A stretch of DNA of 64,000 nucleotides from NCBI GenBank assembly GCA_035541755.1, contig DATKMQ010000093.1, forward strand, positions 1 to 64,000, read 5' to 3'. The position numbers were made by a program, and so were the translations under genes. The stretch comes from Syntrophorhabdaceae bacterium (GTDB taxonomy: Bacteria; Desulfobacterota; Syntrophorhabdia; Syntrophorhabdales; Syntrophorhabdaceae). Shown here piece after piece: positions 4,072 through 63,487 of the stretch. Below the pieces are notes generated by a model. That model did not search any database. It was not told the origin of the DNA and saw only the letters and a program-made list of their open reading frames with translations. Within the stretch, counting starts at the first letter, position 1. Every line of letters begins with the position of its first letter.

Positions 4072-5298
4072 TCATGATTGTTGTTGTGCCTGCTTGTGCA
4101 TCGGCAATACGCTTGCGCCTTGTTTCAGACCATCCAGGTAGTCGGCCCATACCTGCATCATCCTACGACGCTCTTCAAGATGCGCGGTGCGGTTGTACGC
4201 TCGTCCGTTTGGGTCTCTGACAGCATGGGCAAGCTGATGCTCGATAAAGTCGGGCCTGGCTTGCAGCACTTCATCAAGAATGGTTCGGGCCATTGCCCGG
4301 AAGCCGTGACCGGTCATAGTGTCCTTATCATATCCCATCCTGCGAAGGGCTGCGTTTATGGCGTTATTTGACATCGGTCTTGCCAATGACCTGCCCGAAG
4401 GGAATACATATCTGCCGTCGCCGGTCAATGCGCGTAGTTCCGTCAGTGTCTCTATGGCTTGATGGCATAAGGGCACGATGTGGGCCTGCTTCATCTTCAT
4501 CTTATGCGCCGGGATGTTCCAGACCGCTTCATCAAGGTCAATCTCTGCCCACTCCGCCTGACGCAGTTCCCCGGGACGCGCAAAGAACATTGGGGCAAGC
4601 CTCAAGGCACACTTCACGACAAAATGTCCCTGGTAGCCGTCTATGGCCCTGAGAAGAGGGGCAACCTCTTTCGGGTCCGTAATTGCCGCGTGGTGTCTTT
4701 CTCCCGGTTGCGGCAAAGCCCCTTTGAGATCGGCAGCTGGGTTGCGCTCTGCCCTTCCAGTGACAACTGCGTACCGGAAAACCTGCCCGGCAATAGTCTT
4801 AACCCTGTGAGCCGACTCCAAAGCGCCCCTGCTTTCTACTCGGCGAAGAGCCGCCAGTAATTCAGGGGCCTTAATCCCTGCAATGGGACGCTTACCCATC
4901 CACGGAAACAGGTCCCGTTCCAGGCGGCTCATGATCGTTGACGCGTGGCCAGGCGTGCATGTCAGGGTGAACTTTGTATGCCATTCACGAGCAATCACTT
5001 CAAAGGTCTCTACGTCTTCGGTCTGTGCCTGCTTCTGTGCCTTGCGGACAGCACCGGGGTCAATGCCGCATGCAAGTTGTCGCCTGGCTTCGTCCCTTCG
5101 CGCCCTTGCCTCCAGAAGAGAAACCCGAGGATACGTTCCGAGGGCAAGCAGTTTTTCTTTTCCGTCGAAACGATACTTGAACCTGAAATATTTTCCGCCC
5201 TGTGGAGTGACCAAAAGGAAAAGCCCGTCGCCGTCAAAGAATTTCTTCTGCTTTCTTGATGGCTTGCTGGTGCGGACCTTCGCATCACTTAACGCCAT
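4072..5298 (-). CDS. int: P4-type tyrosine integrase (408 aa)
   Basis: The N-terminal 85 residues match the DUF4102 arm-binding domain of P4-family integrases (MALSDAKVRTSKPSRKQKKF, DGDGLFLLVTPQGGKYFRF). A core-binding domain follows. In the catalytic half I see the first Arg (FARPGELRQAEW), the H-x-x-R box (GHGFRAMARTILDE) and the HQLAHAVRDPNG...AYNRT segment with the nucleophilic Tyr. Length fits the family. AAGGA precedes the ATG. The gene ends in the element and starts about 180 bases from the 3' end of ssrA, its likely attachment site. It should catalyse integration and excision. Confidence 0.93.
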   Translation of the reverse strand: MALSDAKVRTSKPSRKQKKFFDGDGLFLLVTPQGGKYFRFKYRFDGKEKLLALGTYPRVSLLEARARRDEARRQLACGIDPGAVRKAQKQAQTEDVETFEVIAREWHTKFTLTCTPGHASTIMSRLERDLFPWMGKRPIAGIKAPELLAALRRVESRGALESAHRVKTIAGQVFRYAVVTGRAERNPAADLKGALPQPGERHHAAITDPKEVAPLLRAIDGYQGHFVVKCALRLAPMFFARPGELRQAEWAEIDLDEAVWNIPAHKMKMKQAHIVPLCHQAIETLTELRALTGDGRYVFPSGRSLARPMSNNAINAALRRMGYDKDTMTGHGFRAMARTILDEVLQARPDFIEHQLAHAVRDPNGRAYNRTAHLEERRRMMQVWADYLDGLKQGASVLPMHKQAQQQS

Positions 5299-46759: not shown

Positions 46760-47209
46760 TTACGCCATTGCTTTGAGTTTTTCCTGCAGGTTCTTCGTGG
46801 TCTCGGCCTCGATCTGTTTCGTCTTCTGTTTCATAATCCTGTCGCCGAACATGGCAAGTTTGCCTACGATGCTCACATCGACGGTATAGACGATCTCAAC
46901 CTCGTCGCCGACCTGATTGAGCCTCACGTCCATCTTCATATTGAAACGACCGAGTTTCGTCATGTCTTCGCCGTCGCCTTCGTACTTCATAAACTTCGGT
47001 TTTTCCGTTTCCACAAGGTGCATGGTGTACTTCATCTTCACGCCGAAGACGCCTACCTTCTGTTTCATCACTCCGGTATAGGTCTTGTCATCAATGATCG
47101 TGGGCGGCTCAGCGCCTGGCAGACAACCCATGATGCTCTCCGGTTTCATGACGAAATCGTACAGCTTGTCAATAGGGGCTTTTACCTTTACACTACCTTC
47201 AAGAATCAT
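46760..47209 (-). CDS. CoxG-like SRPBCC protein
   Basis: The 149-aa protein has the CoxG fold signature EGSVKVKAPIDKLYDFV, the GCLPGAE motif and KVGVFGVKMKYTMHL. CoxG-type proteins accompany molybdenum hydroxylases and are thought to help recruit or mature them at the membrane. It is the last gene of the Mo-hydroxylase operon. Function here is inferred from context. Confidence 0.85.
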   Translation of the reverse strand: MILEGSVKVKAPIDKLYDFVMKPESIMGCLPGAEPPTIIDDKTYTGVMKQKVGVFGVKMKYTMHLVETEKPKFMKYEGDGEDMTKLGRFNMKMDVRLNQVGDEVEIVYTVDVSIVGKLAMFGDRIMKQKTKQIEAETTKNLQEKLKAMA

Positions 47210-47259
47210 AGAAACCTCCTAGAATAGCCCTCACTTTATAGATCGGGCTTCATGCGGAT

Positions 47260-47284
47260 ACCTCCGGTCTTGCCGACCGGAGGT
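47260..47284 (-). other. Intercistronic stem-loop before the CoxG-like gene
   Basis: A perfect 10-bp stem ACCTCCGGTC / GACCGGAGGT with loop TTGCC lies between the 71-aa gene and the CoxG-like gene. No U-run follows on the minus strand. It may be a processing or attenuation point rather than a full terminator. Confidence 0.55.
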
Positions 47285-47309
47285 CTTCCGTATTCTTCTT
47301 CAAAGATGA

Positions 47310-47525
47310 TTACAGTTTACTCTGCGCCTTCTCTACGAGTTTGGCAACAGTTTCGTAGCTCGCATTTCCGGGGCTCGTGGCCTGCTGAACCAATAGGTCT
47401 GCGTATGATTCGCCCTCTGACTCCACCCACGCTCTATGAGGTTTATCGCCAGTCCCGAATATATGCCGCGCTACCTGCAGACTGAAATTCCACTGTTTTT
47501 TACACACAGGACATTTAAAGGCCAT
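47310..47525 (-). CDS. Small zinc-finger-like protein in the Mo-hydroxylase operon (71 aa)
   Basis: The product starts MAFKCPVCKKQWNFSLQVAR and has Cys5, Cys8 and His20 as possible metal ligands, then a helical C-terminus (ETVAKLVEKAQSKL). AGGAGAG precedes the ATG. It is placed between the Mo-subunit gene and the CoxG-like gene with short gaps. I know no name for it. A structural subunit or insertion helper for the Mo enzyme is a guess from context. Confidence 0.7.
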   Translation of the reverse strand: MAFKCPVCKKQWNFSLQVARHIFGTGDKPHRAWVESEGESYADLLVQQATSPGNASYETVAKLVEKAQSKL

Positions 47526-47539
47526 TGTACTCTCCTCCC

Positions 47540-49912
47540 TTATTTTCCTTTTTTAGCACCTTTTGCTGCTTTGTCTTTCTCTTCCTTTTCCTTTAAGGCC
47601 TGGACTATCATATGCGGCCTGACCGGGCATTCTTTCATCTGAATGCCGAGGGCATGGAATATGGCGTTGCCGATTGCCGCAGCCGTCGGGTTCGTGAGGC
47701 CTTCACCCGCTTCTTTTGCTCCGTACGGTCCCTCGGGCTCGTACGTATCAATCTCAGCGATGGGCGTCTCAGGCATCTCGGTTGCCCTGATCATCTTATA
47801 GTCAACCAGGTTCGGGTTCATAAGTTTGCCGTCTTCATAAGGCATATACTCGAGGTATCCATATCCTGCTGCCATGGAGAATGCACCTTCGAGCTGACCG
47901 ATAAGACCGAGGTGGTTAATCGGCGTACCGCAGTCGTGAGCGGTAAGGCTGTCAATGAGATCTATATGGCCTGTCTCTTTGTCGATCTCAACCTCTACCG
48001 CCTGCATCATGTAGCTGTAGGCCGGGGAAATCATACCTTTTCTGTGAGGAGTATAGAAACCTCTGCCGATAATTCTCTGGCCATCTTTGCCGCGGGTCGC
48101 TATTTTACACAGCTCTTCCCATGGCATACCTCTTTCCGGACGCGCCACGATATGTACCCAGCGGTCCTTGATGTCGAGGTCGTAGACGATATTGAGTCCC
48201 ATCTTCGCGTAGGCAAATTCAAGGATCTGCCTCTTTGCGTCTTCGCAGGCCCTCTTAGTGGCATTACCGGTCATCAGGGTCTGGCGGGAGCCCCAGGCGC
48301 CCAGGTCTGCAGGGCAGTGATCCGTATCGCCGGAGTGTACCGTGATATCCTCGACTTTTACTCCGAGGGTCTCAGCCGCAATGATTGCCATGGTCGTGTT
48401 GGAACCCTGTCCGATTTCAGTAGCTCCTATGTGGAGAATGACGGTTCCGTCCTGATTGATGGTGACGACCGCCGAAGAGAATGAGTAGGGGGTATCGAAC
48501 CAGTTAAAGATACCGCCGGACATAAAGCCCGCCGCCGAGTATCCGATGGCCCTGTTTGCAGGCAGTTTGCCCTTGGCTTTGATCCATTCTTTGGTCTTGG
48601 TAAGCGCTTCATCAAGACCGCAACTTGCGATGTAGGCTTGGCCGGGAACTTCGTAGCCCGCATAGTGGCCATTCTTGCGTCTCATCTCGATAGGATCAAG
48701 ACCCAGGTCGGTGGCCATCCATTCGAGCTGCTGCTCGGAGCACCACATCGCCTGAGGAGCGCCAAAACCTCGCATGGAGGTAGATGGCAGGGTGTTGGTG
48801 TAGACGCGGTAACCGTCATATCGGTATGCCGGCCATACGTAAGGGAAAGAGTGGAAGAAGCCGGTCAGATAAAGAGCTGTTGCTCCCATGCCGGTATACG
48901 CGCCGCCGTTACTCACGACCCTCGCTTCACGGGCACAGAAGGTGCCGTCTTTCTTTATACCTGTTCTGACCCAATAGTGCATGGGGGTACGGCGTTTCGT
49001 GGCAATAAAGTCTTCTTCTCTTGTATAGACTATTTTCACAGGCCTGAACAGCTTCATCGTAAGGATCGCGGTACAGAAAATCGCACCATCAAGCTCGAAC
49101 TTTCCGCCGAAGCCGCCGCCCACGTATTTGGCGATGACGCGGATATCGCCCTCTCTGATACCGAGGACGCCTGCCATGAGTGCCTGCATATAATAAGCCG
49201 ACTGGTTTGAATGATAAATGGTAAGTTTGCCTTCAGGGGTGTAGCTCGATACGGCCGCGCGGGTTTCCATGCACATGTGGGCCTGGCCACCACAGAAGAA
49301 GTTATCCTCTCTAATGTAGTCCGCTTCCTCAAAACCGCTTTCGACATCGCCCCATTCGATATGACGCGTCACGTTGATATTTCTTTCCACGCCCTCATGG
49401 ATCGTGGGAGCATCTTTTTTCATCGCTTCCATGGGCTCAAAAACGCCGGGGAGCACCTCGTAGTCAACCTCGATAAGATCGAGTGCCGCCTCCGCGATCT
49501 CCTCTGTAGCGGCCGCAACTGCGGCAACAGGCTCGCCGATATAGCGTACCTTTTCCACCGGCAGTATCTGCTCATCGCAGAGTTCCTGATAACGCCGCCA
49601 GATACCCTGTTTGATACCGAGCGTGTCTTTGCCCGTTACAACAGCCTTGACGCCGTGGAGCGCTAAAGCTTTGCTTGCATCTATGTTCTTTATTCTTGCA
49701 TGGGCATGCGGGCTGCGCAGGATTTTACCGTAGAGCATACCGGGTAGCTTCGTGTCAAAGCTGTAGGTCGCCCGGCCTGTAACCTTCGCAACGCCGTCTA
49801 TATTGTGAACGTGTGTATTGAGGACAGTCAGCTTTTCTTTGGCGAGACCAAAGGTGGTCATCTCCTGTCCTTTTTTGGCTGTGGCCTCTTGTGCTTTCTT
49901 TGTCGTTGTCAT
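47540..49912 (-). CDS. Molybdenum hydroxylase large subunit (xanthine dehydrogenase family)
   Basis: The 790-aa protein has the family motifs [40 protein letters not shown] (Q/F-loop), [12 protein letters not shown] (about 378), [12 protein letters not shown] (cofactor contact) and [13 protein letters not shown] with the catalytic Glu (about 735). It binds the molybdopterin cytosine dinucleotide cofactor and hydroxylates or reduces its substrate. The substrate is unknown, as the active-site loop is not that of CO dehydrogenase (no AYRCSFR). It overlaps the small subunit gene by four bases. Confidence 0.93.
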
Positions 49913-50394
49913 ACTGACCCCTCCTTATATTCACCTCTTGCCACTGCTTCGACAGCCCGTACGATACTGTTGTATCCTGTGCAACGGCATATATTTCCTT
50001 CGATACTCTCTTTTATCTGATCCTTTGTCGGCTTTTTGTTTTCCTTGAGAAGTCCTGATGTCGCCATCAGCATACCCGATGTGCAGAAGCCGCACTGATA
50101 AGAACCGTTATCCAGAAATGCCTTTTGGATCGGGGCAAGCTTACCGTTTACTTCGAGCCCTTCGGAGGTGGTGATCTTCATTCCATCGCACTGTACGGCA
50201 AGGACGGAACATGATTTGACCGCCATATCGTTTACAAGCACCGTGCAGGCGCCGCAAGAAACCGTTTCACAACCCCTCTTTGTTCCAGTGAGGCCAACAT
50301 GGTCCCTTATTGCCTCAACGAGAAGGGTTTTGGGGTTTACATATATTTCATACGCTTGTTCGTTAACTATCAATGTTATAAGTCTCTTTTCCAT
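49909..50394 (-). CDS. Molybdenum hydroxylase [2Fe-2S] small subunit
   Basis: Two iron-sulfur sites: [19 protein letters not shown] with a following SC, and the C-terminal [15 protein letters not shown] with GNICRCTGY. This is the normal arrangement of the small subunit in three-subunit hydroxylases. It carries electrons between the Mo site and FAD. Length (161 aa) is normal. Confidence 0.95.
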
Positions 50395-50414
50395 TTCTCA
50401 AACCTCCTTCACCC

Positions 50415-51284
50415 TTATTTGGAAGCCTGTTCCCAGGCTTTTTTTGCCATGCGCTTCGTGAGAACTTTGACGAGGTGGCGTCTATATTCTTCAGATGCAT
50501 GAATATCGGACACCGGATCCGCATCGGCAGCCGCGGCTTCTCCGGCCTGGGCAAACAGTGCGTCACTCAACTTCTTGCCTACGAGCACCTTCTCCGCGCT
50601 TTTGGCCCTGATCGGTGTGACGCCGGCATTACCGAGGACAACCCTCGCATCTTTGCAGGCGCCGCTCGCATCGGCAACCACGGACACAGCCACGCCAACA
50701 ACTCCCATATCGTTTCGCAGGAGGTTGAATTTCGTATATGCCACACCGCTTTTGGCGGGCATAGGGGGAACCTGGATTTCAACGATCATCTCGTCATGTT
50801 CCATAACCGTTTCGAAAATGTCGGTGTAGAAATCTTCGAGCGGGACAAGCCTTTCACCCTTTGCCGAAGCAATTTTGACCTGTGCATTAAGCGTGGTGAG
50901 GACCGGAGCAGGATCTCCTGCCGCATCACCGTGGGCAAGGTTGCCGCCGATCGTGCCCCAGTTACGGGTCTGTGTGGAAGCGAGTCTGTCTTCCATCTCT
51001 ACAAGAACAGGATAATGCTTTTTGATCACATCCGATTTCTCGATCATCCTGTGCGTCGTGGTGGCGCCCATCTTGAGGCCTTCTTTCGCGTCATACTTGA
51101 TGTAGCTCAACTCATTGAGCCCTTTGATGTCGATCAAGTAGTCCGTGACTAATAGCCCTTGCCGCATCGGAATCAGCAATGACTGACCGCCGCAGACGAT
51201 CTTGCATTCATCTACATGGTCCGCGAGCATGGCCAGGGCTTCTTTGACGGAGCCGGGTTTTAGGTACGTAAAATCGTGTATCAT
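50415..51284 (-). CDS. Molybdenum hydroxylase FAD subunit
   Basis: The 289-aa protein shows CGGQSLLIPMRQGLL (FAD pyrophosphate loop) and NWGTIGGNLAHGDAAGDPAP, both typical. It lacks the four-cysteine loop that binds an extra [4Fe-4S] cluster in 4-hydroxybenzoyl-CoA reductase, since only single scattered cysteines are present. This argues for a xanthine-dehydrogenase-like electron path. It starts 81 bases downstream of the end of the 90-aa cysteine protein. Confidence 0.93.
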   Translation of the reverse strand: MIHDFTYLKPGSVKEALAMLADHVDECKIVCGGQSLLIPMRQGLLVTDYLIDIKGLNELSYIKYDAKEGLKMGATTTHRMIEKSDVIKKHYPVLVEMEDRLASTQTRNWGTIGGNLAHGDAAGDPAPVLTTLNAQVKIASAKGERLVPLEDFYTDIFETVMEHDEMIVEIQVPPMPAKSGVAYTKFNLLRNDMGVVGVAVSVVADASGACKDARVVLGNAGVTPIRAKSAEKVLVGKKLSDALFAQAGEAAAADADPVSDIHASEEYRRHLVKVLTKRMAKKAWEQASK

Positions 51285-51365
51285 GCGTCTCTCCTTTCGT
51301 TAAATTTTCCGAATTCCTTATCTAGTAACTTATAGCATCATACGATACAATTGCCAGGACTCAAA

Positions 51366-51638
51366 CTACCGCACACCGAATTTCTCGAATTCCTCCGTTT
51401 CTATCATATCTTCCACATCGGTAATCACGTTGCGACTGGACAGAACCTCGGAAGGAACATCGACGGTGAAATTTCGAACGCCATAAACCGTTTTTTCTTT
51501 GCCAGCTTTACCGCCCTCGCCTACCAGACATCCGCGATACTCCTTTTTGAAACACAAATAGTAGTGACTTCCCCTGTATACGGCGCAGTCTCTGCAGATC
51601 CGGTTTGAAAAAGGACACGTCATTGCTACTTTTGCCAT
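51366..51638 (-). CDS. Cysteine-rich small protein heading the Mo-hydroxylase operon (90 aa)
   Basis: The N-terminal half has a compact cysteine set, MTCPFSNRICRDCAVYRGSH then YYLCFKKEYRGC, that could hold an Fe-S cluster or zinc. The second half is acidic with no motif. GAGAGGTG precedes the ATG. It is the first gene behind the promoter at 51819-51847. No family name is known to me, and it is a candidate electron carrier or maturation factor for the hydroxylase. Confidence 0.7.
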   Translation of the reverse strand: MAKVAMTCPFSNRICRDCAVYRGSHYYLCFKKEYRGCLVGEGGKAGKEKTVYGVRNFTVDVPSEVLSSRNVITDVEDMIETEEFEKFGVR

Positions 51639-51818
51639 GTACCATCACCTCTCATAACGCATTTTTCACGACAAAAATCAAGGACATTTTCCATGCTGCC
51701 TCATCTCTTTGCCGTGGGAGTTATTTGCCAGAGCTACCTTTTTCCGCTGTCCTGAAACACCTCTGAAGTTTCAATGGCTTATGTTCATTATTACGAATCA
51801 TGCAACCCTTGCTTCCTT

Positions 51819-51847
51819 TTTATACTATAGTTTATATTCCTTATCAA
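51819..51847 (-). promoter_or_regulatory. Promoter of the Mo-hydroxylase operon
   Basis: TTGATA (51842-51847), 17 bases and TATAAA (51819-51824) on the minus strand, in AT-rich DNA. It would leave a leader of about 175 bases before the first ATG, enough for further regulation. Confidence 0.5.
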
Positions 51848-51923: not shown

Positions 51924-51959
51924 ACGCATGTGCCGGGAATTTTTTCCCGGCACATGCGT
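51924..51959 (-). terminator. Perfect 16-bp hairpin after the FAD/CCG unit
   Basis: The arms at 51924-51939 and 51944-51959 pair without mismatch around a TTTT loop. It begins 18 bases past the stop of the FAD oxidoreductase gene. There is no U-run on the minus strand, so it may end transcription with Rho or protect the 3' end. Confidence 0.6.
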
Positions 51960-51977: not shown

Positions 51978-53591
51978 TTACTTCCACTCAGGCATAGGGA
52001 GTTTCTTGGGGGCCTTCCAATCCTTCATGGATTTCATCCAGGGTGCTCGATCCACGAACTCGTCATGGGCAAGCGGAACCGGCGGATGGCAAACCCACAG
52101 CGGGTCAAATTCATCTTTCACCTTGAGAAGCCATTCGTGGTAGTTCGGTCCGTATTTGGGGCCCGTGAGGTAGAGGGGTTGATGCGGGCCAAGAAGCGAT
52201 GTATAGAACCGCTCTTTGATGTTCATCTTGGAGGTTTCAACATAGAACTGGTCTACGCCCGTTGTATCCTCATCCTGATCCCAGTACACGAGGAATTCCG
52301 AATATCCCTGATGGCCGAGCTCAAAGCTCTGGAACCAGCCCGGATCACCGTAATCGGGCATGAGAGGAGGCGTATAATTTCTTTTGGTCTTGGCATAGGA
52401 TTCGCCATGTACCGTGGCCTGTGAGAGCGATTCGATGATGTAATCAACGGAGACATAAGAACCGCACATGAGCCACATACCCGCGGAGTCAGCATTCTTG
52501 ATCCACGACTCGTCGAGCGGTCTTGTTGCCCTGGGTTTGGCGCCCAATTCTGCCATAATGTCGTTTAACACATTTTCATCGTACTGCATCTGTTCTTCCG
52601 AGGTATAACCGATAAGGAGCACGCGCACGATAAAGAAGTTCTTGATCGTGTTCTCGTCTTCTTTGCCCCAGAGTTCCCAGAACTCTTCTTTGGACTCCGC
52701 CTTATTGATCGCCCTCCAGAAAAGGGGCACCTTTGTGATGGCGCCCGCTACCTCGGCCTTTCCGACCTCAAACATGGCCTTTACCTGGGCCGCTTTACTC
52801 GGCACCTGGTAGTTGATCCATTTGACCCGGTTCGTGGGGAGTTGCAGTCCCGTGTTCGGTGAAATGCCGGTGGGTACGAGCGGCTCGGGCTGGAAGGGAA
52901 GGGTCTTGATTGCCATTTTCGTTACAATTCCGAGGCAGCCACGCAGTCCCGTAAACCCGCGAAGAAGTCCTCTCAGGTCAGGACCGGGACCGTCTCCCCA
53001 GAAGGGATCGCTGCCGTCGGCCAAAGAACCCATCTTCACGAGTTCTCCGTCAGGCAAAACAAGCTCGGTGCCGAGGATACGTCTGTGGGGCAGACCGATT
53101 CTGTGGCTCAACGGTGACCACCCATCGCCGATCAGGTTTGCGATCGCCGATGCCTGCGCCCCGCCGCCGCCGATGACTACGTAGGCGCCTTTGTTGAGTG
53201 CTTCCTGCTGGATCGGGGAATAAATAACGCCGGGGCCGACGACGATGTAGAAGTGTTTTTCGTCGATCTCGAAGTCATTCATCCGCTTCATGTCGATGAG
53301 CAATTCGTTCTCCACATGGCAATGGGAACGGGGTCCGTAAAAGCCGGTTGCATAGGGCACGTACGGAACTTTATACCGGTTGCATATCTTTACGATCTTT
53401 TGCACGTCCTCGGTCGTCCTGGGCAGTATCACTGCGCCCGGGATTTTGGTCATGACCTTCTCATATCCGAGACCGCTTTCATACCCGCCCGGTCCGGACC
53501 TGTATCCTTCGCAGACAGCAGGATCATCGGAGAGATACCTGGCGCCAACGACCGATTCTAATGCGTTGTATGCTGCTTTCTGTATACTCAT
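51978..53591 (-). CDS. FAD-linked oxidoreductase (GlcD/VAO-type), 537 aa
   Basis: The N-terminal half is an FAD-binding domain of the PCMH type: PGAVILPRTTEDVQKIVKIC, GPGVIYSPIQQEAL and FTGLRGCLGIVTKMAIK. The C-terminal half is an oxidase-like substrate domain. The family includes glycolate/lactate oxidases, p-cresol and vanillyl-alcohol enzymes. No covalent-FAD residue can be assigned by eye. It is one of two FAD subunits flanking a CCG-type Fe-S protein, so electrons probably leave through that protein. Substrate unknown. About 150 residues in the middle appear as a divergent region. Confidence 0.85.
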   Translation of the reverse strand: MSIQKAAYNALESVVGARYLSDDPAVCEGYRSGPGGYESGLGYEKVMTKIPGAVILPRTTEDVQKIVKICNRYKVPYVPYATGFYGPRSHCHVENELLIDMKRMNDFEIDEKHFYIVVGPGVIYSPIQQEALNKGAYVVIGGGGAQASAIANLIGDGWSPLSHRIGLPHRRILGTELVLPDGELVKMGSLADGSDPFWGDGPGPDLRGLLRGFTGLRGCLGIVTKMAIKTLPFQPEPLVPTGISPNTGLQLPTNRVKWINYQVPSKAAQVKAMFEVGKAEVAGAITKVPLFWRAINKAESKEEFWELWGKEDENTIKNFFIVRVLLIGYTSEEQMQYDENVLNDIMAELGAKPRATRPLDESWIKNADSAGMWLMCGSYVSVDYIIESLSQATVHGESYAKTKRNYTPPLMPDYGDPGWFQSFELGHQGYSEFLVYWDQDEDTTGVDQFYVETSKMNIKERFYTSLLGPHQPLYLTGPKYGPNYHEWLLKVKDEFDPLWVCHPPVPLAHDEFVDRAPWMKSMKDWKAPKKLPMPEWK

Positions 53592-53602
53592 ATCATGCCT
53601 CC

Positions 53603-54922
53603 TTATTTATCCACTGAAGCAAGGATAAGCTCTGCTATATCCATTACTTTTACATTCTCGGCGTTCTCTTTTGCCGCCTGGCTGAAATTGCTCTTGCACC
53701 AGGGGCATGCGGACACGAGAACCTCAGCGCTCACTTCCTTGACCTCTTCCATTCGGTGCTCGGCAGAAAACTTCGCCAGTTCCGGAAAGGCCTCTTTTGT
53801 TCCTCTTCCGGCGCCGCAGCAGAAAGCGTTCTCTCTGGTCCTCGGCATCTCGACAAACTTGGCGCCCGGGATGGCGTTGAATATATTTCTCGCCTCCAGA
53901 TACAGGCCGGATTTGCCGCGCCTTCTCTTGAGTGTAGGGCTCACGCAGCCCATCCAGCCCCGCTCGCCTTTCCATGGCGTCCAGGGGTCGCAGAGCCTGC
54001 TCACGCCGCATGAATCATGATACGTGAAGCGGAAATCCACGGGTTTTTTCAACTTCAGGCTACCCTGTTTTATCGCCTCATCGGCGAACTCGATGAGATG
54101 GATCACTTTGAAGGGAAGATCATCCGTGGCAATCTCAAGCAGCTTCGGGTAATCGACCTTGAGCATGCGGTAGCACTCTGCGCAGCTCGTAATGACCGTT
54201 TTCGCCCCGGTCTTCTTGATCGCTTCAATGTTGCGTTTGGCAAGCGTTCTTGCTTCATCTATCATGCCCACGGAATAGATCGTGTTACCACAGCACCATT
54301 CGTCCTTCATAAGCTGGAAGCGCGCGCCCGATGCGTTGAGTATCTTGGCCGTGGCACGGGCTATGTCGGGATTCACGTAGGAAGCCGAGCAACCGGGAAA
54401 GTAGAGCAGATCAGCCTTGTCGGTAACCTTGATGTCTTTGGTAAGCCATTTGTGCCTGTTTTCGTGGGCTGATCCGAACTGGTTGTGCTTGGTGGCAATA
54501 TTCTTGGCCACTTTCTTGTGCACGGGCATGGGACCCGCTCCATCCTTTACCGCCTTCACCCTCAGCGCCTCGAGGGTAAGCCCAATTTCCAGGTCAAGGT
54601 TGCGCTTGCATCCCACATCGCAGGCGCCGCAGAGCGGATCGGCGTAGATGATCTCGAGGAGCTTATCGGTCCACTCAAGCTTTTCTTCATTGATGGCGAG
54701 GCCAATTCTCATTTTTCCAAAGGCGCCATACGAATCAAAATCGTTCCAGGTATTGCTCGGGCATCTCGTTGAAAATTTGACGCCGGGCATATAGGTGTGT
54801 TCTACCCAGTAGCACCCCTTGCATTTAATACAGTGGTCCATATCGTAAACAAAATTGTCCAATTTTGTCACGTCCAGGCTTACTTTCTTTTTTGGTGTAT
54901 CATAGCGATCTTTTTTCTGCAT
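53603..54922 (-). CDS. CCG-domain iron-sulfur oxidoreductase (GlcF/HdrD-like)
   Basis: The N-terminus has a ferredoxin-like motif CIKCKGC...STRCPS and CGACDVGCKRN. Two CCG domains follow: FPGCSAS, WCCGNTIY and SCAECYRM, then DSCGVSRLC, FCCGAGRG and ACPWCKSNF. Such proteins join FAD dehydrogenases and pass electrons to quinones or other carriers (GlcF, LutA, HdrD). It lies between two FAD subunits, with 10-11 base gaps, so all three form one unit. Length 439 aa. Confidence 0.9.
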   Translation of the reverse strand: MQKKDRYDTPKKKVSLDVTKLDNFVYDMDHCIKCKGCYWVEHTYMPGVKFSTRCPSNTWNDFDSYGAFGKMRIGLAINEEKLEWTDKLLEIIYADPLCGACDVGCKRNLDLEIGLTLEALRVKAVKDGAGPMPVHKKVAKNIATKHNQFGSAHENRHKWLTKDIKVTDKADLLYFPGCSASYVNPDIARATAKILNASGARFQLMKDEWCCGNTIYSVGMIDEARTLAKRNIEAIKKTGAKTVITSCAECYRMLKVDYPKLLEIATDDLPFKVIHLIEFADEAIKQGSLKLKKPVDFRFTYHDSCGVSRLCDPWTPWKGERGWMGCVSPTLKRRRGKSGLYLEARNIFNAIPGAKFVEMPRTRENAFCCGAGRGTKEAFPELAKFSAEHRMEEVKEVSAEVLVSACPWCKSNFSQAAKENAENVKVMDIAELILASVDK

Positions 54923-54932
54923 CGTATCCTCC

Positions 54933-56390
54933 TTAGAAACACAGATTGCCGGGGTTCATAATATTCTTGGGGTCAAAGACCTTCTTTACGCGCTTGAGTG
55001 CCATGGTGTAACCGGCGGCTCTATCGAATATTATGGGTGCCAGCTCTCCGTACGGTCTTGTGAAAAATGCACCTTCGTTCATCATAGCCAACGCCGCCTC
55101 ATGGTACATCCCCGCCACCAGGGCTCGCTCCGCTTCGTCTTTGGGATCATAGAAGAAGCTAAACTCAACCTGGCAAGCCCGGTTGTGTTCTATGGGCTGG
55201 ATGTGGCTTCCTACATCGCTCATGGGATAGCCGTACTTGGCGGCCACAAACTCCATGATTTCGATGTACATCGGCGCCTGTACCGGTTTGGTGATAAAGA
55301 AGAGATTCTGGAATCCGCCTTTGAGCCGGTTCTTCCAGTAAGGGGCGTTCGTGGGCCACGGCTTTCTCAGCATGGGCAAAAGTTTTCTCCCAAGACCGGG
55401 GAAACCGGGAAGGTTGTCTCCAAGGGGCAGTTTTGGGAATTCGTTTTTCAACACCTGCTTTAGAAAGTTTTCTTCGTACGCTATCTTTTCCTCAGGTCTT
55501 CTCAAAAGACCACTTATGACGAGAACGAGTGACCAGGGGGGAAGTTCTGCACGGAGCCGCTCGAAATCCGAGGACATGTCGTCCGCGGCGAGCAGGGCAA
55601 GGTCTACGTTGTTGAGTAAGAGGCATTCCTGGCCTATCCTCCTGGGAAGAATCCTGTAAAGAAAATCGATGGCGTAGGGCAGATCGTATACCGGGGCAAA
55701 GAATATCTTGTCCGTCCTCGGGGTGTACTCTGCCTTCAAACTTATCCATGTGACAACGCCCATGGTCCCCTGGGCACCCTGCACGAATCGGTAGAAGTCA
55801 AGCCCCGGTCCGGACGGATTTGCGCCCCTTGACTTGGATTCGGGGAAACCGTTTACGCTCGCTGAGCCGCACCGGAAGACTTCGCCGGTGGGCCAGACGA
55901 CCTCCAATGATTGCGTGGGTTCGCCGTAATCATAGACCGTATTTATGGGCACTTCCCTTTCGAGAGAGTCGGTCAGCACGGAGCGCTCACCATGAGGTAA
56001 AAGCGGCATGATAACTCTCATGCCCTTCTTCTCCAGCGCGCTCGTCAGCTGCTTCCAGGTAACCCCTGCTTCAAACCGCACCAAGCGGTTTTCCGTGTCG
56101 ATCTCAAGGATCTTGTTCATCCTTTTGAGATCGACCACCACTCCGCCCTGCTTGGGTATGGAGCATCCGTAGAAGTGCGCCCTTGAACTGACGGGAACAA
56201 CAGGGATGTTCTCCTGGTTGCACCATGTCACGATCTTTCCCACCTCCTGCGAGGTAGCCGGAAAGACCACGGCGTCAGGCATCCCGGGAGGAAGAAGACT
56301 CTGGTCCCGCGAATATTTCTCGCGATCCCCGATGCTGTCGCTCACGTACTCTTTACCAACAATCTTTGCAAGCTCATTTTTTATTTCCAT
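54933..56390 (-). CDS. FAD-linked oxidoreductase (GlcD-type), 485 aa
   Basis: This second FAD subunit has the PCMH-type domain (PDAVVFPATSQEVGKIVTWC, RFEAGVTWKQLTSALEKKG, VQGAQGTMGVVTWISLK) and the typical GlcD ending FDPKNIMNPGNLC. It is the first gene of the unit and is read divergently from the MarR gene. Its relation to the 537-aa subunit is moderate, so they may act on the same substrate as partners or on two successive ones. Confidence 0.88.
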   Translation of the reverse strand: MEIKNELAKIVGKEYVSDSIGDREKYSRDQSLLPPGMPDAVVFPATSQEVGKIVTWCNQENIPVVPVSSRAHFYGCSIPKQGGVVVDLKRMNKILEIDTENRLVRFEAGVTWKQLTSALEKKGMRVIMPLLPHGERSVLTDSLEREVPINTVYDYGEPTQSLEVVWPTGEVFRCGSASVNGFPESKSRGANPSGPGLDFYRFVQGAQGTMGVVTWISLKAEYTPRTDKIFFAPVYDLPYAIDFLYRILPRRIGQECLLLNNVDLALLAADDMSSDFERLRAELPPWSLVLVISGLLRRPEEKIAYEENFLKQVLKNEFPKLPLGDNLPGFPGLGRKLLPMLRKPWPTNAPYWKNRLKGGFQNLFFITKPVQAPMYIEIMEFVAAKYGYPMSDVGSHIQPIEHNRACQVEFSFFYDPKDEAERALVAGMYHEAALAMMNEGAFFTRPYGELAPIIFDRAAGYTMALKRVKKVFDPKNIMNPGNLCF

Positions 56391-56664: not shown

Positions 56665-57126
56665 ATGGCAAAGATCAACTATCGAAGCGACTTAAGCGGC
56701 GATGAGAATGTGCTCATGGCACTCGTTCGGGCTGCCGAGACCTTCAAGAGGGTAGTGTCGGCCATTTTCAGGAAGTATGACCTTTCCTTTCCGCAATACA
56801 ACGTCTTGAGAGTGCTCGACGCCTCAAAAAACGGCCGAAACAGGATTACCGATGTAAGCAGGATCATGCTGGTGCCGGGCGCCAATATGACGGGCATAGC
56901 CAAGAGGCTCGAGAAGAGCGGCTTCATCGTGAGAAAGTCCGATCCCCGGGATGAGCGGGTAACCATCCTTGAGATTACCCAAAAGGGCAAGAAACTCCTT
57001 GGCAAGATTGAAAAGGAACGAGATCAGAATATGCATGCCATGCTCAGAGGCTTTACCGAGGAGCGGAAGCGCGGACTTCTCGATAACGTGAAGCGACTTA
57101 TCAGAAACAGCAGGCAGATATCTTAG
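56665..57126 (+). CDS. MarR-family transcriptional regulator
   Basis: The winged-helix core is plain: LSFPQYNVLRVLDASKNGRN, DVSRIMLVPGANMTGIAKRL, and the wing RKSDPRDERVTILEITQKGK. GAGGTGAGG precedes the ATG. It is read away from the FAD/CCG unit and likely represses it in response to a substrate. Length 153 aa is normal. Confidence 0.92.
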   Translation: MAKINYRSDLSGDENVLMALVRAAETFKRVVSAIFRKYDLSFPQYNVLRVLDASKNGRNRITDVSRIMLVPGANMTGIAKRLEKSGFIVRKSDPRDERVTILEITQKGKKLLGKIEKERDQNMHAMLRGFTEERKRGLLDNVKRLIRNSRQIS

Positions 57127-59455: not shown

Positions 59456-60268
59456 CTAATGTCTGTGATACAGGTAATGAGAGTGCCGGTGGGCGTGGGC
59501 CAGCACGCCATGGTAATGCATATGCTCGTGGATGAGATTTACCCGCAACAAAAGATCTTCATCCCCGAGTATCGCATCTGCCGCCCCCACCCTCTCTATG
59601 GTGTGCTCCTCCGAGAGCACCCCCACGGTGGGCTGCAATTCATCAACAAGGGTGAGATCATGAGTGCTCACCAGAATAGTCTTCCCCGCCTCATTGAGCT
59701 CGAATATCAGTTCCGTAAGGAAACATTGTGTCCTCGGGTCGAGGCCTCCTGTGGGTTCATCAAGAAGCAGCACCTCGGGATTCATGGTCAACACGGAACC
59801 CACGGCAACCTTCTTCTTTTCCCCTTCCGAGAGCATGTACGGGGGCCTCTTTGTGAGCGCTTCGATGTGGAGCATCTTGATTACCGCCTGTGCCCGCTCT
59901 AACGCCTCAACGTGTGGTATCCCCAACTGCATGGGACCGAAAACGAGTTCATCAAGGACGGTCGGGCTAAAGAGCTGTACGTCCGGATCCTGAAATATAT
60001 AGCCCACACCGGCGCGGAAAAACTTCAGAAAACCTCTCTGTCTTAAGGACCGCTCAGTCACCTCTCTGCCCTTAAAGAAGATCCTGCCTGAGTCAGGTAA
60101 AAGAAGGCCGCTCATCACTCGAAGCAGGGTTGATTTTCCGCTTCCATTGGTCCCGATCAGGGCAAATTTTTCACCTTGCTTGAGACTCAAACTCACGTTA
60201 AGGAGGGCTGGAATCGTATCATGATACCGGTAGCTCACCCGTTCCACGTTAAGTATCGGTTCTTCCAT
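59456..60268 (-). CDS. nikO: ECF nickel/cobalt transporter ATPase with His-rich tail
   Basis: Walker A LIGTNGSGKSTLLR, signature LSEGEKKKVAVG and Walker B VLLLDEPTGGLDP identify the CbiO/NikO ATPase. The last 30 residues carry about ten His (HEHMHYHGVLAHAHRHSHYL), an unusual metal-binding-looking tail. It ends the nikR-nikMNQO operon. It is named nik because of the adjacent nikR; a cobalt role is possible. Confidence 0.9.
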   Translation of the reverse strand: MEEPILNVERVSYRYHDTIPALLNVSLSLKQGEKFALIGTNGSGKSTLLRVMSGLLLPDSGRIFFKGREVTERSLRQRGFLKFFRAGVGYIFQDPDVQLFSPTVLDELVFGPMQLGIPHVEALERAQAVIKMLHIEALTKRPPYMLSEGEKKKVAVGSVLTMNPEVLLLDEPTGGLDPRTQCFLTELIFELNEAGKTILVSTHDLTLVDELQPTVGVLSEEHTIERVGAADAILGDEDLLLRVNLIHEHMHYHGVLAHAHRHSHYLYHRH

Positions 60269-60278
60269 AAGTCTTTCC

Positions 60279-61208
60279 TTATGTTAGGATGAGGCACATA
60301 CCGGCGACGAGCATGAAAGCTCCCGCCACAATGTCGGCCGATTTCATATTGTGCAACTCGCCAAACACCATGTCGCCGCTAAAACCACGGGCAAGCATGG
60401 CCTCATAGATCTTCTCGCAATGCGCACGCGTTTTGCGGAATAAAAAGGCGAGCCTCTGTGCAATCCAGTCTCTGGTTTCGGATGCATCTGCCTCCACCAC
60501 CTTGCTCTTCCTTGCAAGATGGAAATCTTCGACGGTCTCAGCAAAGACGAAGATGTATTTGTAAGACAGGGTAATGATCATGAGAAAAAGATCAGGCACA
60601 CGCAGGGCTTTAAGGGCCTTGATAATTTCGGAAAAGGGCGTGGTGTGTATGATAAGAAAAGAGAGAGAAAGGGAATTGATTACCCTCACTGTAATGAGAA
60701 GAACCCCTTCAAGGCCTTGCCTCGTGATACCTATGGTTTGCGGTATCCGGTAGATCCAGATCTCGTATTGCCTGGAGAGATGGATAAGGGGCCATGCCAC
60801 GGATCCGCCGCTAACCAGATTCAAACAGGAGGGAAGTACCACGAGAAAACCAAAGAAAAAGCCGAGAAACAGGACCTTTGAGTAGAAAGCTGCGAGGTTG
60901 AGACGGGAGAGGCCGGCAAGGATAAGGATGAAAAGACCGATAGCAGCTTCCGGCATAACGGTCTTCTTGGCGCTGATAATTGCCATAAAGACAAAAAGAA
61001 ACATGAGTTTCACCCTGGGATCGAGCTGTTGCATCAACCCTTGTCTCTGAGCGCCGTCCCAGTGGATACAGGTGCTTTTGATAAAGGCGGCGAAATGGTC
61101 AAGACTCCGGTCGAAGAAGCGCGACCCCCGTGTCCTGCCCTTGGTACAGGGGGAACCGTAGCTGTCATTTGATCTTTTTAGAAGAAACTCAGGGATCTGG
61201 CTTCTCAT
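60279..61208 (-). CDS. nikQ: ECF nickel/cobalt transporter T component
   Basis: Several membrane segments, the DPRVKL motif near residue 65 and the coupling helix ARGFSGD (about 275) are CbiQ/NikQ features. It links the S component to the ATPases. The N-terminus is about 60 residues longer than usual, and an internal start is possible. The start overlaps the nikN gene by four bases. Confidence 0.85.
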   Translation of the reverse strand: MRSQIPEFLLKRSNDSYGSPCTKGRTRGSRFFDRSLDHFAAFIKSTCIHWDGAQRQGLMQQLDPRVKLMFLFVFMAIISAKKTVMPEAAIGLFILILAGLSRLNLAAFYSKVLFLGFFFGFLVVLPSCLNLVSGGSVAWPLIHLSRQYEIWIYRIPQTIGITRQGLEGVLLITVRVINSLSLSFLIIHTTPFSEIIKALKALRVPDLFLMIITLSYKYIFVFAETVEDFHLARKSKVVEADASETRDWIAQRLAFLFRKTRAHCEKIYEAMLARGFSGDMVFGELHNMKSADIVAGAFMLVAGMCLILT

Positions 61209-61534
61209 GTCTTCCTTAACATTTTCACGATGAAGCTGAGAACGATCGAGGCCATCGCAATACCCACAAAACCGGAGAGGGCGTACGAAATGATCCGGAC
61301 ACCGTCTTTACTGTCTTCACCCCCCAAGCCATAATCAGCCATGGGCGCCTTCCACATGCCCGACTCCTTCTTCAAACCCTGGGGGGTATAACCGAGCTTC
61401 CCCCGGATAGTATCAGAATTCCATTCTCCCCACGCCTGGCCGGCCCTAAATTTCTCAGGAAGGATGATGCCCAGGGGAGAAACAAGGGTGAGCACGATAA
61501 TCCCGATCCAGAGTCTCTTCTGGGTTCTTGTCAT
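61205..61534 (-). CDS. nikN: NikN/CbiN-like (PDGLE) small membrane component
   Basis: Two membrane segments (about residues 8-26 and 85-105) flank a soluble loop. The protein starts RTQKRLWIGIIVLTLVSPLG and belongs to the PDGLE type that works with CbiM/NikM. It overlaps both neighbours by four bases. Confidence 0.8.
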   Translation of the reverse strand: MTRTQKRLWIGIIVLTLVSPLGIILPEKFRAGQAWGEWNSDTIRGKLGYTPQGLKKESGMWKAPMADYGLGGEDSKDGVRIISYALSGFVGIAMASIVLSFIVKMLRKT

Positions 61535-62220
61535 ATCGGATCACCCCGCCGCAGGGCGTAGATCTGTGCTGGTTCGTGGCGGAGAAGATACTTGAAAAGC
61601 AAGGCGGTGATGATACCCTCTATCACACCGAATAAGGCCAAATGTTCGATAGCCATTGCGGGGACCGCGACCGAAAGGGGATAAGGCGCATACAGGGGCC
61701 TGCCATCTACCCCCCGGGCTATGAGGGGTTGAATGCCGAATTCGAATCCCGTCATTATTGCGGCCGCGCAAAGCCCTGTATATCCCGCAACAAATGCGGC
61801 CACGTAGGGTCGTACCCCTTCCATCTTTTTCCCGTTGACGGCTCTAAACATCCAATAGGCCATAAAAGGCATGACAACCGCCATGTTGAAGCAGTTGGCG
61901 CCGATAGCCGTAACGCCACCATCGCCGAACACTATTGCCTGGATCATGACGACAACGGAGATGGCAATCACGGCAGTCCAGGGACCGAGGAATATGGCTA
62001 CAATGCCGCCACCCACCGCGTGGCCCGTGGTGCCTCCAGGGATGGGGATATTGAACATCATGATGAGAAACGAGAAGGATGCGGCCATGGCCAGGTACGG
62101 GACCTGTCTCGTGGAAAGCTCCCTCTTCACTTTCTTGAGCGCAATCGACCAGAATACAAGGGAAATTCCCCAGAGGGGCCCGTAGCTTTGAGGGCTTAAA
62201 TATCCGTCGGGTATATGCAC
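61531..62220 (-). CDS. nikM: ECF nickel/cobalt transporter S component
   Basis: The N-terminus MHIPDGYLSP is the metal-binding Met-His start of CbiM/NikM, and the motif GTTGHAVGGGIVAIFLGPW has the third ligand region. About six membrane segments. It binds and moves Ni2+ or Co2+. Adjacent nikR argues for nickel. Confidence 0.93.
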   Translation of the reverse strand: MHIPDGYLSPQSYGPLWGISLVFWSIALKKVKRELSTRQVPYLAMAASFSFLIMMFNIPIPGGTTGHAVGGGIVAIFLGPWTAVIAISVVVMIQAIVFGDGGVTAIGANCFNMAVVMPFMAYWMFRAVNGKKMEGVRPYVAAFVAGYTGLCAAAIMTGFEFGIQPLIARGVDGRPLYAPYPLSVAVPAMAIEHLALFGVIEGIITALLFKYLLRHEPAQIYALRRGDPI

Positions 62221-62235
62221 CGGGACTCTACCTTC

Positions 62236-62991
62236 TCACCACAGTTTGTCGCTCACGAGCCTTAGGCCCATTCCCACAAAGGTATTCAGCTGCTCGCTGC
62301 CAAAAAGCCCTGAGCCTGTGGTCATGTCGATCTGGATCTTATCGCTCACGATATATCGAAACCCCGCCTGGAAGGCCCCGCCTGTCTTTCCTGCGTAAGG
62401 ATCGTTGTAGAATACTTCAAATACGCCGTTGAGCCCTCCTATCATACGGATCTGAGTACCGACGCCCCATGTAGCCACTGTTGCAGGGTTGGTGGTCGAA
62501 ATGCCGATGTTGCCATGGATAAGCACACGCTCCTTGTCAAAGAGCGATTCTGTTGCAGCGAGGTAGAGAAACTCGCTCCACCTGTTGGGCCTTAGATCGC
62601 CTCTACCCCAGGGCGGGGATGCACCTGTGGCGAAAGCCATGCCCGGATACCCGTTCGGTTTCGCCTCCCAGAGCAAGTATTTGTACTGAATGAGGGGTCC
62701 TGTTATGGAGAAACTCCGGTTGGACTCGACATCAAGGGGAAACCCATCAACGAAACCCATGGTTATTTCAGATTTTTTGACAGGGCTCATGGCAACAAGG
62801 TTCAAGTTCGTGAAAACATCCTTGTCGTAGCGGACCGAAGCCTCGAGCTGCATCGTATGTTCATCGAGAATACGGGCGTCATCAGTCACAAAAGGACGGA
62901 CGGCCAAAGCCCGACGGGCAAAGACACCTGCGAGAATAACCGAGACAAAGACAGCGACAAGGATTCTCGTGAGCGAAATAGATTTCTCCAT
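62236..62991 (-). CDS. Outer-membrane beta-barrel protein in the nickel operon
   Basis: A signal peptide (residues 1-30, VFARRALAVRP) precedes a 220-residue barrel-like protein with alternating hydrophobic stretches and a C-terminal GLRLVSDKLW. It resembles the MetA-phenol-degradation-like outer-membrane group. Located between nikR and nikM and co-transcribed with them, it may help pass nickel or a nickel complex across the outer membrane. That role is inferred. Confidence 0.65.
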   Translation of the reverse strand: MEKSISLTRILVAVFVSVILAGVFARRALAVRPFVTDDARILDEHTMQLEASVRYDKDVFTNLNLVAMSPVKKSEITMGFVDGFPLDVESNRSFSITGPLIQYKYLLWEAKPNGYPGMAFATGASPPWGRGDLRPNRWSEFLYLAATESLFDKERVLIHGNIGISTTNPATVATWGVGTQIRMIGGLNGVFEVFYNDPYAGKTGGAFQAGFRYIVSDKIQIDMTTGSGLFGSEQLNTFVGMGLRLVSDKLW

Positions 62992-63013
62992 AGTACGGCC
63001 TCCCCAAGAAAAT

Positions 63014-63430
63014 TTATTTCAGACGTTTGCCTGTTGTTGTTGCGGTCAACTTTCCGTGCTTTACGCCCTTTGTTCCAATAAGTCTGTCGGCAATCTCTTT
63101 AATGTCTCTCGTCTTTCCCTTTACGATAATCACCTCAAGGCAATTGTGCTTATCAAGATGTACGTGCATGGTCGACACGATGGACCTGTGGTGCTGGTGC
63201 TGGAGGTCCGTCAAGGTGTCCGTCAGCTCATGCGTTTCGTGAGAGTAGACGATGGTTATGGTTCCAACGGCTTCAACGGACGATGATTCCCATTCTTCCG
63301 CGACAAGACTGTTTCTGATAAGGTCGCGGATCGCTTCACTGCGGTTCGAATAGCCTTTTTTCTTTATAAGGTCGTCGAATTTCGTAAGCAGGGGGTTTTC
63401 GATAGATGTACCGAAGCGTGCAACCGACAT
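63014..63430 (-). CDS. nikR: Nickel-responsive regulator NikR
   Basis: A ribbon-helix-helix ([34 protein letters not shown]) precedes an ACT-like domain with nickel ligands in [20 protein letters not shown] (H...HxH...C). The ATG 63428-63430 gives a 138-aa protein with GGAGA upstream, and a longer frame would begin inside the promoter. It represses nickel uptake genes when nickel is sufficient. It is first in the operon and so likely autoregulated. Confidence 0.93.
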
Positions 63431-63431
63431 C

Positions 63432-63487
63432 GTGTTACTATCTCCTTTTTTCGTGTTACTTATACCAGCCTTTTTTGCCTTTGTCAA
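63432..63487 (-). promoter_or_regulatory. nikR promoter with two GTAACAC elements
   Basis: TTGACA (63482-63487), 17 bases and TATAAG (63459-63464) form a near-consensus promoter. GTAACAC follows directly (63453-63459) and again 14 bases on (63432-63438), next to the start codon. These match half-sites I recall for NikR operators in related bacteria, except that they are in direct, not inverted, orientation. Confidence 0.65.

What the first reader, a model, noticed from the sequence alone, without database searches (positions are those of the whole stretch)
46760..51847. Mo-hydroxylase operon with two undescribed small cysteine proteins
The order is a 90-aa cysteine-rich protein, FAD subunit, [2Fe-2S] subunit, Mo subunit, a 71-aa zinc-finger-like protein and a CoxG-like protein, behind one promoter. 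The two small proteins have no family I know and could be new electron carriers or maturation factors. The FAD subunit lacks the extra [4Fe-4S] loop of 4-hydroxybenzoyl-CoA reductase, so the substrate is open.
Basis: partly seen in the sequence, partly recalled or inferred. Interest (0 to 1): 0.65.

Follow-up and report, generated by a model that had tools for sequence, protein, structure and literature searches.

The report
Mo-hydroxylase with two new helper proteins
A molybdenum enzyme in an anaerobic, probably aromatic-degrading bacterium is always encoded together with two tiny metal-binding proteins of unknown function, an arrangement conserved across several bacterial phyla, so the two are probably dedicated helpers needed to build or hold this enzyme type.

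Summary
The six genes are real, co-directional and ordered as described: p90, FAD, 2x[2Fe-2S], Mo, p71, CoxG. The association far exceeds chance. In unbiased scans of 1,093 genomes (Desulfobacterota, plus the phyla of a Dehalococcoidales and an Aminicenantes genome), p71 occurred in 24 genomes (25 loci), each time beside a Mo large-subunit gene. The p71-bearing Mo subunits form one clade (support 0.999). In Desulfobacterota all 14 genomes with this Mo subunit also have p90. p90 has no Pfam or NCBIfam family. p71 is a small C2H2 zinc-finger protein with helices (AlphaFold pLDDT 95), only weakly similar to DUF5810. The FAD subunit lacks the [4Fe-4S] loop of 4-hydroxybenzoyl-CoA reductase. About half of the p90 copies away from Mo cassettes lie in Fe-S/metal-cofactor assembly islands (Mrp/MinD, NifU, FeMoCo-type, XdhC). 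The reading I favour is a distinct, quinone-linked (CoxG) xanthine-oxidase-family enzyme with dedicated assembly or maturation proteins; electron carriers are less likely. Function is inferred, not shown. Upstream, a GlcDEF-like flavoprotein trimer shares the architecture of the putative benzene-activating flavoprotein of BzS1 and often accompanies such Mo-hydroxylases. Verdict: new variant of a known kind.

The parts
51366..51638 (-). p90: 90-aa protein; N-terminal ~40-residue module C-x6-C-x2-C-x10-C with CPF/I...YRGRHYYLCF, plus a variable tail
   Evidence: ORF; no Pfam/NCBIfam family; module conserved in 63 loci
50415..51284 (-). FAD subunit (medium) of a xanthine-oxidase-family Mo-hydroxylase, without the [4Fe-4S] loop
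   Evidence: PF00941 7.5e-48, PF03450 1.5e-24; loop absent in all cassette copies compared, cysteine-rich insert present in two own-genome paralogs
49909..50394 (-). [2Fe-2S]x2 small subunit
   Evidence: PF01799, PF00111
47540..49912 (-). Molybdopterin large subunit; catalytic Glu at residue 737, equivalent to Glu726 of Thauera HcrA
   Evidence: MoCoBD_1/2; best solved relative 1rm6_A, E 1.2e-126; Glu conserved in 31/31 p71-bearing homologues
47310..47525 (-). p71: C2H2 zinc-finger-type protein (C-x2-C-x12-H-x8-H) with four helices
   Evidence: AlphaFold pLDDT 94.8; motif in 49/49 homologues; weak DUF5810 similarity
46760..47209 (-). CoxG-like SRPBCC protein, proposed membrane/quinone partner
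   Evidence: PF06240 1.8e-17; best solved relative 8uds_D, a CoxG-family protein, E 5.3e-10
51978..53591 (-). FAD4: PCMH-type FAD-binding flavoprotein (537 aa), part of an upstream trimer that often accompanies the cassette
   Evidence: PF01565; conserved order FAD4b-CCG-FAD4
53603..54922 (-). CCG-domain Fe-S protein (439 aa) of the trimer
   Evidence: PF02754 4.2e-32
54933..56390 (-). FAD4b: FAD_binding_4 plus FAD-oxidase_C flavoprotein (485 aa) of the trimer
   Evidence: PF01565, PF02913
51924..51959 (-). 16-bp perfect hairpin just after the FAD4 stop; probably separates the trimer transcript from the Mo cassette
   Evidence: -31.4 kcal/mol, z -6.8; no U-tail, so not a classical terminator

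Best explanation
This is a distinct clade of xanthine-oxidase-family Mo-hydroxylase that carries two dedicated small accessory proteins. Shown: genes, domains, conserved linkage, monophyly of the p71-bearing Mo subunits, conserved catalytic Glu, missing [4Fe-4S] loop. Inferred: the L-M-S trimer (hydroxy)oxidises an organic, probably aromatic or CoA-activated carboxylate; electrons run Mo -> two [2Fe-2S] -> FAD -> quinone, with the CoxG-like protein docking the enzyme to the membrane or handing over quinone. p90 and p71 act on the enzyme rather than in its electron path. p90 is a metal-binding assembly/maturation factor (cluster or Mo-cofactor delivery or quality control). p71 is a zinc-stabilised adaptor or chaperone for the Mo subunit, whose gene it directly follows.
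For: p71: 14/297 Desulfobacterota genomes, 2/400 and 8/396 genomes of two further phyla; all 25 loci adjacent to a Mo large-subunit gene. Mo subunits with >=75% identity occur in 14 of 297 genomes and are exactly the genomes that have p71 and p90. p71-bearing Mo subunits are monophyletic, support 0.999, with one secondary loss, L097. 41 of 63 p90-module loci directly precede the FAD subunit, 35 of these with p71; four of the other six are cut by contig ends. Away from the cassette, 11 of 20 p90 copies (12 if the XdhC-only locus L129 is counted) have Mrp/MinD, NifU, FeMoCo-type, DUF5320, radical-SAM or XdhC genes nearby, against 3 of 43 cassette-group loci; MrpORP proteins of such islands transfer Fe-S clusters (PMC6345978). 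p71 folds confidently. CoxG relatives anchor oxidoreductases to the membrane (PMC11962113) and are proposed to link Mo-CODH to quinone (PMC13240472).
Against: All functional evidence for p90 and p71 is genomic context. No fold for p90 (pLDDT 51). The assembly-island genes are common in anaerobes, and p90 also occurs fused to receiver domains and to a nucleoside-phosphorylase domain, which suits a regulatory or docking role equally well. One clade member (L097) lacks p71, and the related 45-55% Mo enzymes manage without it. No metal content, partner or substrate is known.
Confidence: 0.5

Rival explanations
1. p90 and p71 are small structural subunits of the mature enzyme (a five- or six-component complex), for instance joining the trimer to CoxG or to the upstream flavoprotein trimer.
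For: Strict linkage of p71 to the Mo gene in 25/25 loci and in most cases same-operon position of CoxG; p71 is compact and confidently folded.
Against: p90 tail is variable and predicted with low confidence; p90 module lives in other genomic contexts without Mo genes; one clade member lacks p71.
Confidence: 0.2
2. They are regulators: p71 a single C2H2-finger DNA-binding protein, p90 a metal- or redox-sensing signalling module.
For: C2H2 finger profile matches; p90 module fused to receiver domains (PF00072), in three cases within 1.5 kb of a related Mo cluster.
Against: p71 lies inside the operon between Mo and CoxG or at its end, in several phyla with different neighbours; no fold match to a DNA-binding protein at E<0.001; the H-x8-H spacing is longer than in classical fingers.
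Confidence: 0.15
3. The small proteins are electron carriers between the FAD subunit and the respiratory chain.
For: p90 has a conserved C-x6-C-x2-C-x10-C set; electrons must leave without the [4Fe-4S] loop.
Against: p71 has two Cys and two His, a zinc pattern; p90 of two cassettes (L044, L237) lacks the fourth cysteine; CoxG already offers a quinone route; p90 paralogs sit in assembly islands.
Confidence: 0.1
4. The enzyme is simply a 4-hydroxybenzoyl-CoA reductase and the small proteins are incidental.
For: Best solved relative is HcrA (427 bits, next 268); TIGR03194 is its best NCBIfam model (660 bits).
Against: 660 is below the 994.55 cut-off; FAD subunit lacks the loop; the own genome holds FAD subunits with the cysteine-rich insert and a Mo subunit (C122, 685 bits) that groups with HcrA, outside the p71 clade.
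Confidence: 0.05

Closest known systems
4-hydroxybenzoyl-CoA reductase HcrABC (1rm6, TIGR03193-03195)
   Same: Same xanthine-oxidase-family trimer; closest solved relative of the Mo subunit; conserved catalytic Glu
   Different: No [4Fe-4S] loop in the FAD subunit; below all three equivalog cut-offs; separate clade; p90, p71 and CoxG attached
Mo-CO dehydrogenase CoxMSL with CoxG
   Same: L-M-S trimer plus a CoxG-family partner (closest solved relative 8uds_D)
   Different: Active-site segment is SMRGFGAPQ, not the form I AYXCSFR loop as I know it; CODH models far below cut-off; no coxDEF genes among the neighbouring genes seen
DUF5810 (PF19126) / C2H2 zinc fingers
   Same: p71 relatives score up to E 1.1e-8 against DUF5810, N-terminal finger half
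   Different: Window p71 scores 19.1 bits against a cut-off of 26.9; C-terminal helical half not covered
BzS1_12970/80/90, putative benzene-activating flavoprotein; also GlcDEF glycolate oxidase
   Same: Upstream trimer has the same architecture and order: FAD(+FAD-oxidase_C), Cys-rich Fe-S protein, FAD without it
   Different: Sequence identity to BzS1 could not be measured here; the paper notes 23-42% homologues in non-benzene degraders
XdhC / MrpORP-type maturation systems
   Same: p90 paralogs are neighbours of such genes
   Different: p90 has no detected sequence relation to them and no known fold

Membership tests
Xanthine-oxidase-family Mo-hydroxylase | Ald_Xan_dh_C + MoCoBD large subunit with catalytic Glu, two-cluster [2Fe-2S] subunit, FAD_binding_5 subunit | tested here: met
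4-hydroxybenzoyl-CoA reductase | [4Fe-4S] loop in the FAD subunit | tested here: not met
   paralogs C25 and C66 of the same genome have a cysteine-rich insert at that place
4-hydroxybenzoyl-CoA reductase | Scores over TIGR03193/03194/03195 cut-offs | tested here: not met
   169/258, 660/995 and 131/405 bits
Mo-Cu CO dehydrogenase | CoxL equivalog score and Cu-binding active-site loop | tested here: not met
   TIGR02416 277 of 991 bits, NF040766 325 of 950; segment SMRGFGAPQ; loop identity from own knowledge
CoxG | COXG domain above gathering score | tested here: met
   PF06240 63.8 bits, cut-off 22.2
CoxG | Quinone binding / membrane recruitment | not testable with these tools
   literature on relatives only
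DUF5810 | Gathering score 26.9 bits | tested here: not met
   window p71 19.1 bits; relatives scanned singly at most 26.5; one member of A4 reaches E 1.1e-8
C2H2 zinc finger | C-x2-C ... H ... H ligand set | tested here: met
   49/49 homologues with C-x2-C..H-x8-H; zinc itself not testable
GlcDEF / BzS1-type flavoprotein (upstream trimer) | Two FAD_binding_4 proteins plus CCG Fe-S protein in one operon | tested here: met
GlcDEF / BzS1-type flavoprotein (upstream trimer) | Close sequence relation to BzS1_12970/80/90 | not tested
   BzS1 sequences not available in the collections used

The most novel reading that the evidence does not exclude
p90 and p71 build or insert a modified Mo centre (an extra ligand or second metal, as in Mo-Cu CO dehydrogenase or the Mo-Cu orange protein), making this clade a Mo-hydroxylase with a new active site and a new dedicated maturation pathway shared across several phyla of anaerobes.
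Probability: 0.08. Interest if true: 0.85.

Novelty: new variant of a known kind. Interest (0 to 1): 0.55.

Why it matters
Maturation of xanthine-oxidase-family enzymes is known mainly through XdhC-type chaperones. Two uncharacterised protein families that track one enzyme clade across Desulfobacterota, Chloroflexota and Aminicenantes (with an incomplete set in Bacteroidetes) point to a separate assembly or electron-exit solution in anaerobes. The enzyme sits with a flavoprotein trimer of the type recently proposed for anaerobic benzene activation, in organisms central to syntrophic aromatic degradation, so its substrate is worth finding. The clear genetic signature (p71) makes the clade easy to recognise in metagenomes, where such genes risk being misnamed as CO or xanthine dehydrogenase.

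Tried and rejected
AlphaFold on p90 gave no usable model, so no fold search was made with it. PDB sequence and profile searches with p90 found nothing convincing. Foldseek of p71 gave only a weak hit, 4lqx SSO2700 (E 0.36; also E 0.29 by profile), not relied on. Plasmid search found neither small protein, and for the Mo subunit mostly 36%-identity xanthine-dehydrogenase annotations. Promoter scan was no better than chance. Considered and rejected: 4-hydroxybenzoyl-CoA reductase membership, CO dehydrogenase membership, p71 as an Fe-S protein, an isolated chance neighbourhood. The p-cresol idea (flavoprotein trimer oxidises an alkylphenol, Mo enzyme the aldehyde) was considered from general knowledge; the trimer matches PCMH/VAO only over the FAD domain, so it stays a guess.

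Full report
What is there. The window belongs to a bacterium of the Syntrophorhabdaceae: the same family holds a genome whose cassette contig (37,101 bases) matches a record titled Syntrophorhabdaceae SKW35. The six ORFs are at the stated coordinates on the minus strand with gaps of 81, 20, -4, 14 and 100 bp. Pfam identifies the FAD, [2Fe-2S], Mo and CoxG proteins; p90 hits no family and p71 only sub-threshold zinc-finger models and DUF5810. A perfect 16-bp hairpin follows the upstream gene. No promoter-like site stands out, so 'one promoter' is an inference.

The linkage is real. In 297 Desulfobacterota genomes the Mo subunit has 14 relatives of >=75% identity. Exactly those 14 genomes carry p90 and p71, with p71 beside the Mo gene in every case. 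A scan of a genome collection with the p90 profile found 63 loci. In 41, p90 directly precedes the FAD subunit, or CoxG and then the FAD subunit; 35 of these have p71. Four of the six without it end at a contig edge, one (L118, Bacteroidetes) has no Mo gene, and one (L097) lacks only p71. Profile searches for p71 that did not use p90, in 400 and 396 genomes of two other phyla (those of a Dehalococcoidales and an Aminicenantes genome), found 10 genomes and 11 loci, all beside a Mo gene. p90 lies upstream in the loci that extend far enough (L110 and L104). The gene order is p90-FAD-FeS-Mo-p71-CoxG in most, and p90-CoxG-FAD-FeS-Mo-p71 in Dehalococcoidia.

Phylogeny. In a FastTree of 55 Mo subunits the 31 p71-bearing sequences form one clade (support 0.999) that includes only one p71-less member, L097. 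The sister group (52-55% identity) has CoxG and, in three cases, a protein carrying the p90 module nearby, in two of them with a receiver domain. Next come 45% enzymes without p90 or p71. HcrA and the own-genome C122 copy fall outside. The simplest reading is that p71 was gained once and kept.

Which enzyme. The best solved relative is the alpha subunit of 4-hydroxybenzoyl-CoA reductase, but all three equivalog cut-offs are missed. The FAD subunit lacks the loop in all cassette copies compared, while two other FAD subunits of the same genome have a cysteine-rich insert there. The catalytic Glu is kept in 31/31. Neighbours vary: ABC, TRAP or SSS-type transporters, and AMP- or ADP-forming acyl-CoA ligases in some. 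This suggests catabolism of an imported, CoA-activated carboxylate; the substrate is unknown.

The small proteins. p71 is predicted with high confidence (pLDDT 94.8) as a short beta-hairpin finger plus four helices; the ligand set C-x2-C..H-x8-H is kept in 49/49. p90 is a ~40-residue module with Cys8, Cys15, Cys18 and His25 invariant and Cys29 nearly so, and a variable tail; AlphaFold gives no fold. In the 20 other contexts, p90 copies stand in islands of Mrp/MinD ATPases, NifU, FeMoCo-domain, DUF5320, radical-SAM and XdhC genes (11 loci, or 12 counting one with XdhC only), or are fused to receiver domains or to a nucleoside-phosphorylase domain. Mrp/ORP islands serve Fe-S assembly (PMC6345978). 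This favours an assembly or maturation role over electron transfer, but does not prove it.

Electron exit. The CoxG protein is closest to a solved CoxG-family protein (8uds_D). CoxG relatives anchor a glycerol-3-phosphate dehydrogenase to the membrane (PMC11962113) and are proposed to connect Mo-CODH with the quinone pool (PMC13240472). I propose the same here.

Wider unit. Upstream lie FAD4b-CCG-FAD4, a GlcDEF-like trimer with the architecture and order of BzS1_12970/80/90, proposed to act in anaerobic benzene activation (PMC13416013). FAD4 at >=76% identity occurs in 21 of 297 Desulfobacterota genomes, including 11 of the 14 cassette genomes. In other families it lies a few kb from the different, 45%-identity Mo-hydroxylase, and it also precedes p90 in Dehalococcoidia. 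The trimer and a Mo-hydroxylase therefore seem to work in one pathway; p90 and p71 belong to the Mo side.

Verdict.

Noticed in passing
51978-56390: GlcDEF-like flavoprotein trimer (FAD4b-CCG-FAD4) with the architecture of the putative benzene-activating flavoprotein BzS1_12970/80/90; very conserved (76-90% for FAD4) and often near a Mo-hydroxylase.
   Followed up: partly
56665-57126: MarR-type regulator; similar-looking MarR proteins stand beside the trimer in several other genomes (L213, L215, L216, L219), so it probably controls it.
   Followed up: partly
51924-51959: Perfect 16-bp hairpin without U-tail right after the FAD4 stop codon.
   Followed up: partly
L046, L047, L049-L051, L121: p90 module fused to receiver (REC-like) domains, in L046 and L049 convergent with a 52-53%-identity Mo-hydroxylase/CoxG cluster.
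   Followed up: partly
L115:5499-10258: Dehalococcoidia locus with FAD4b-CCG-FAD4-p90 followed by a corrinoid protein and a methyltransferase instead of the Mo-hydroxylase.
   Followed up: no
L096:10001-18056: Chloroflexi locus with a tandem Mo-p71-Mo-p71 duplication.
   Followed up: no
L002 (G000:C100:45660-45740): A second p90-like protein in the same genome (CPISKAACIECGLFRGRHVHCSFF), away from the cassette; neighbours not identified.
   Followed up: no
4072-5298: Protein that looks like a tyrosine integrase, with small unknown ORFs beside it; probably a mobile element edge (from sequence inspection only).
   Followed up: no
59456-63487: CbiMQO-like ECF metal transporter genes with a NikR-like regulator at 63014-63487; probably a nickel uptake system (from sequence inspection only).
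   Followed up: no
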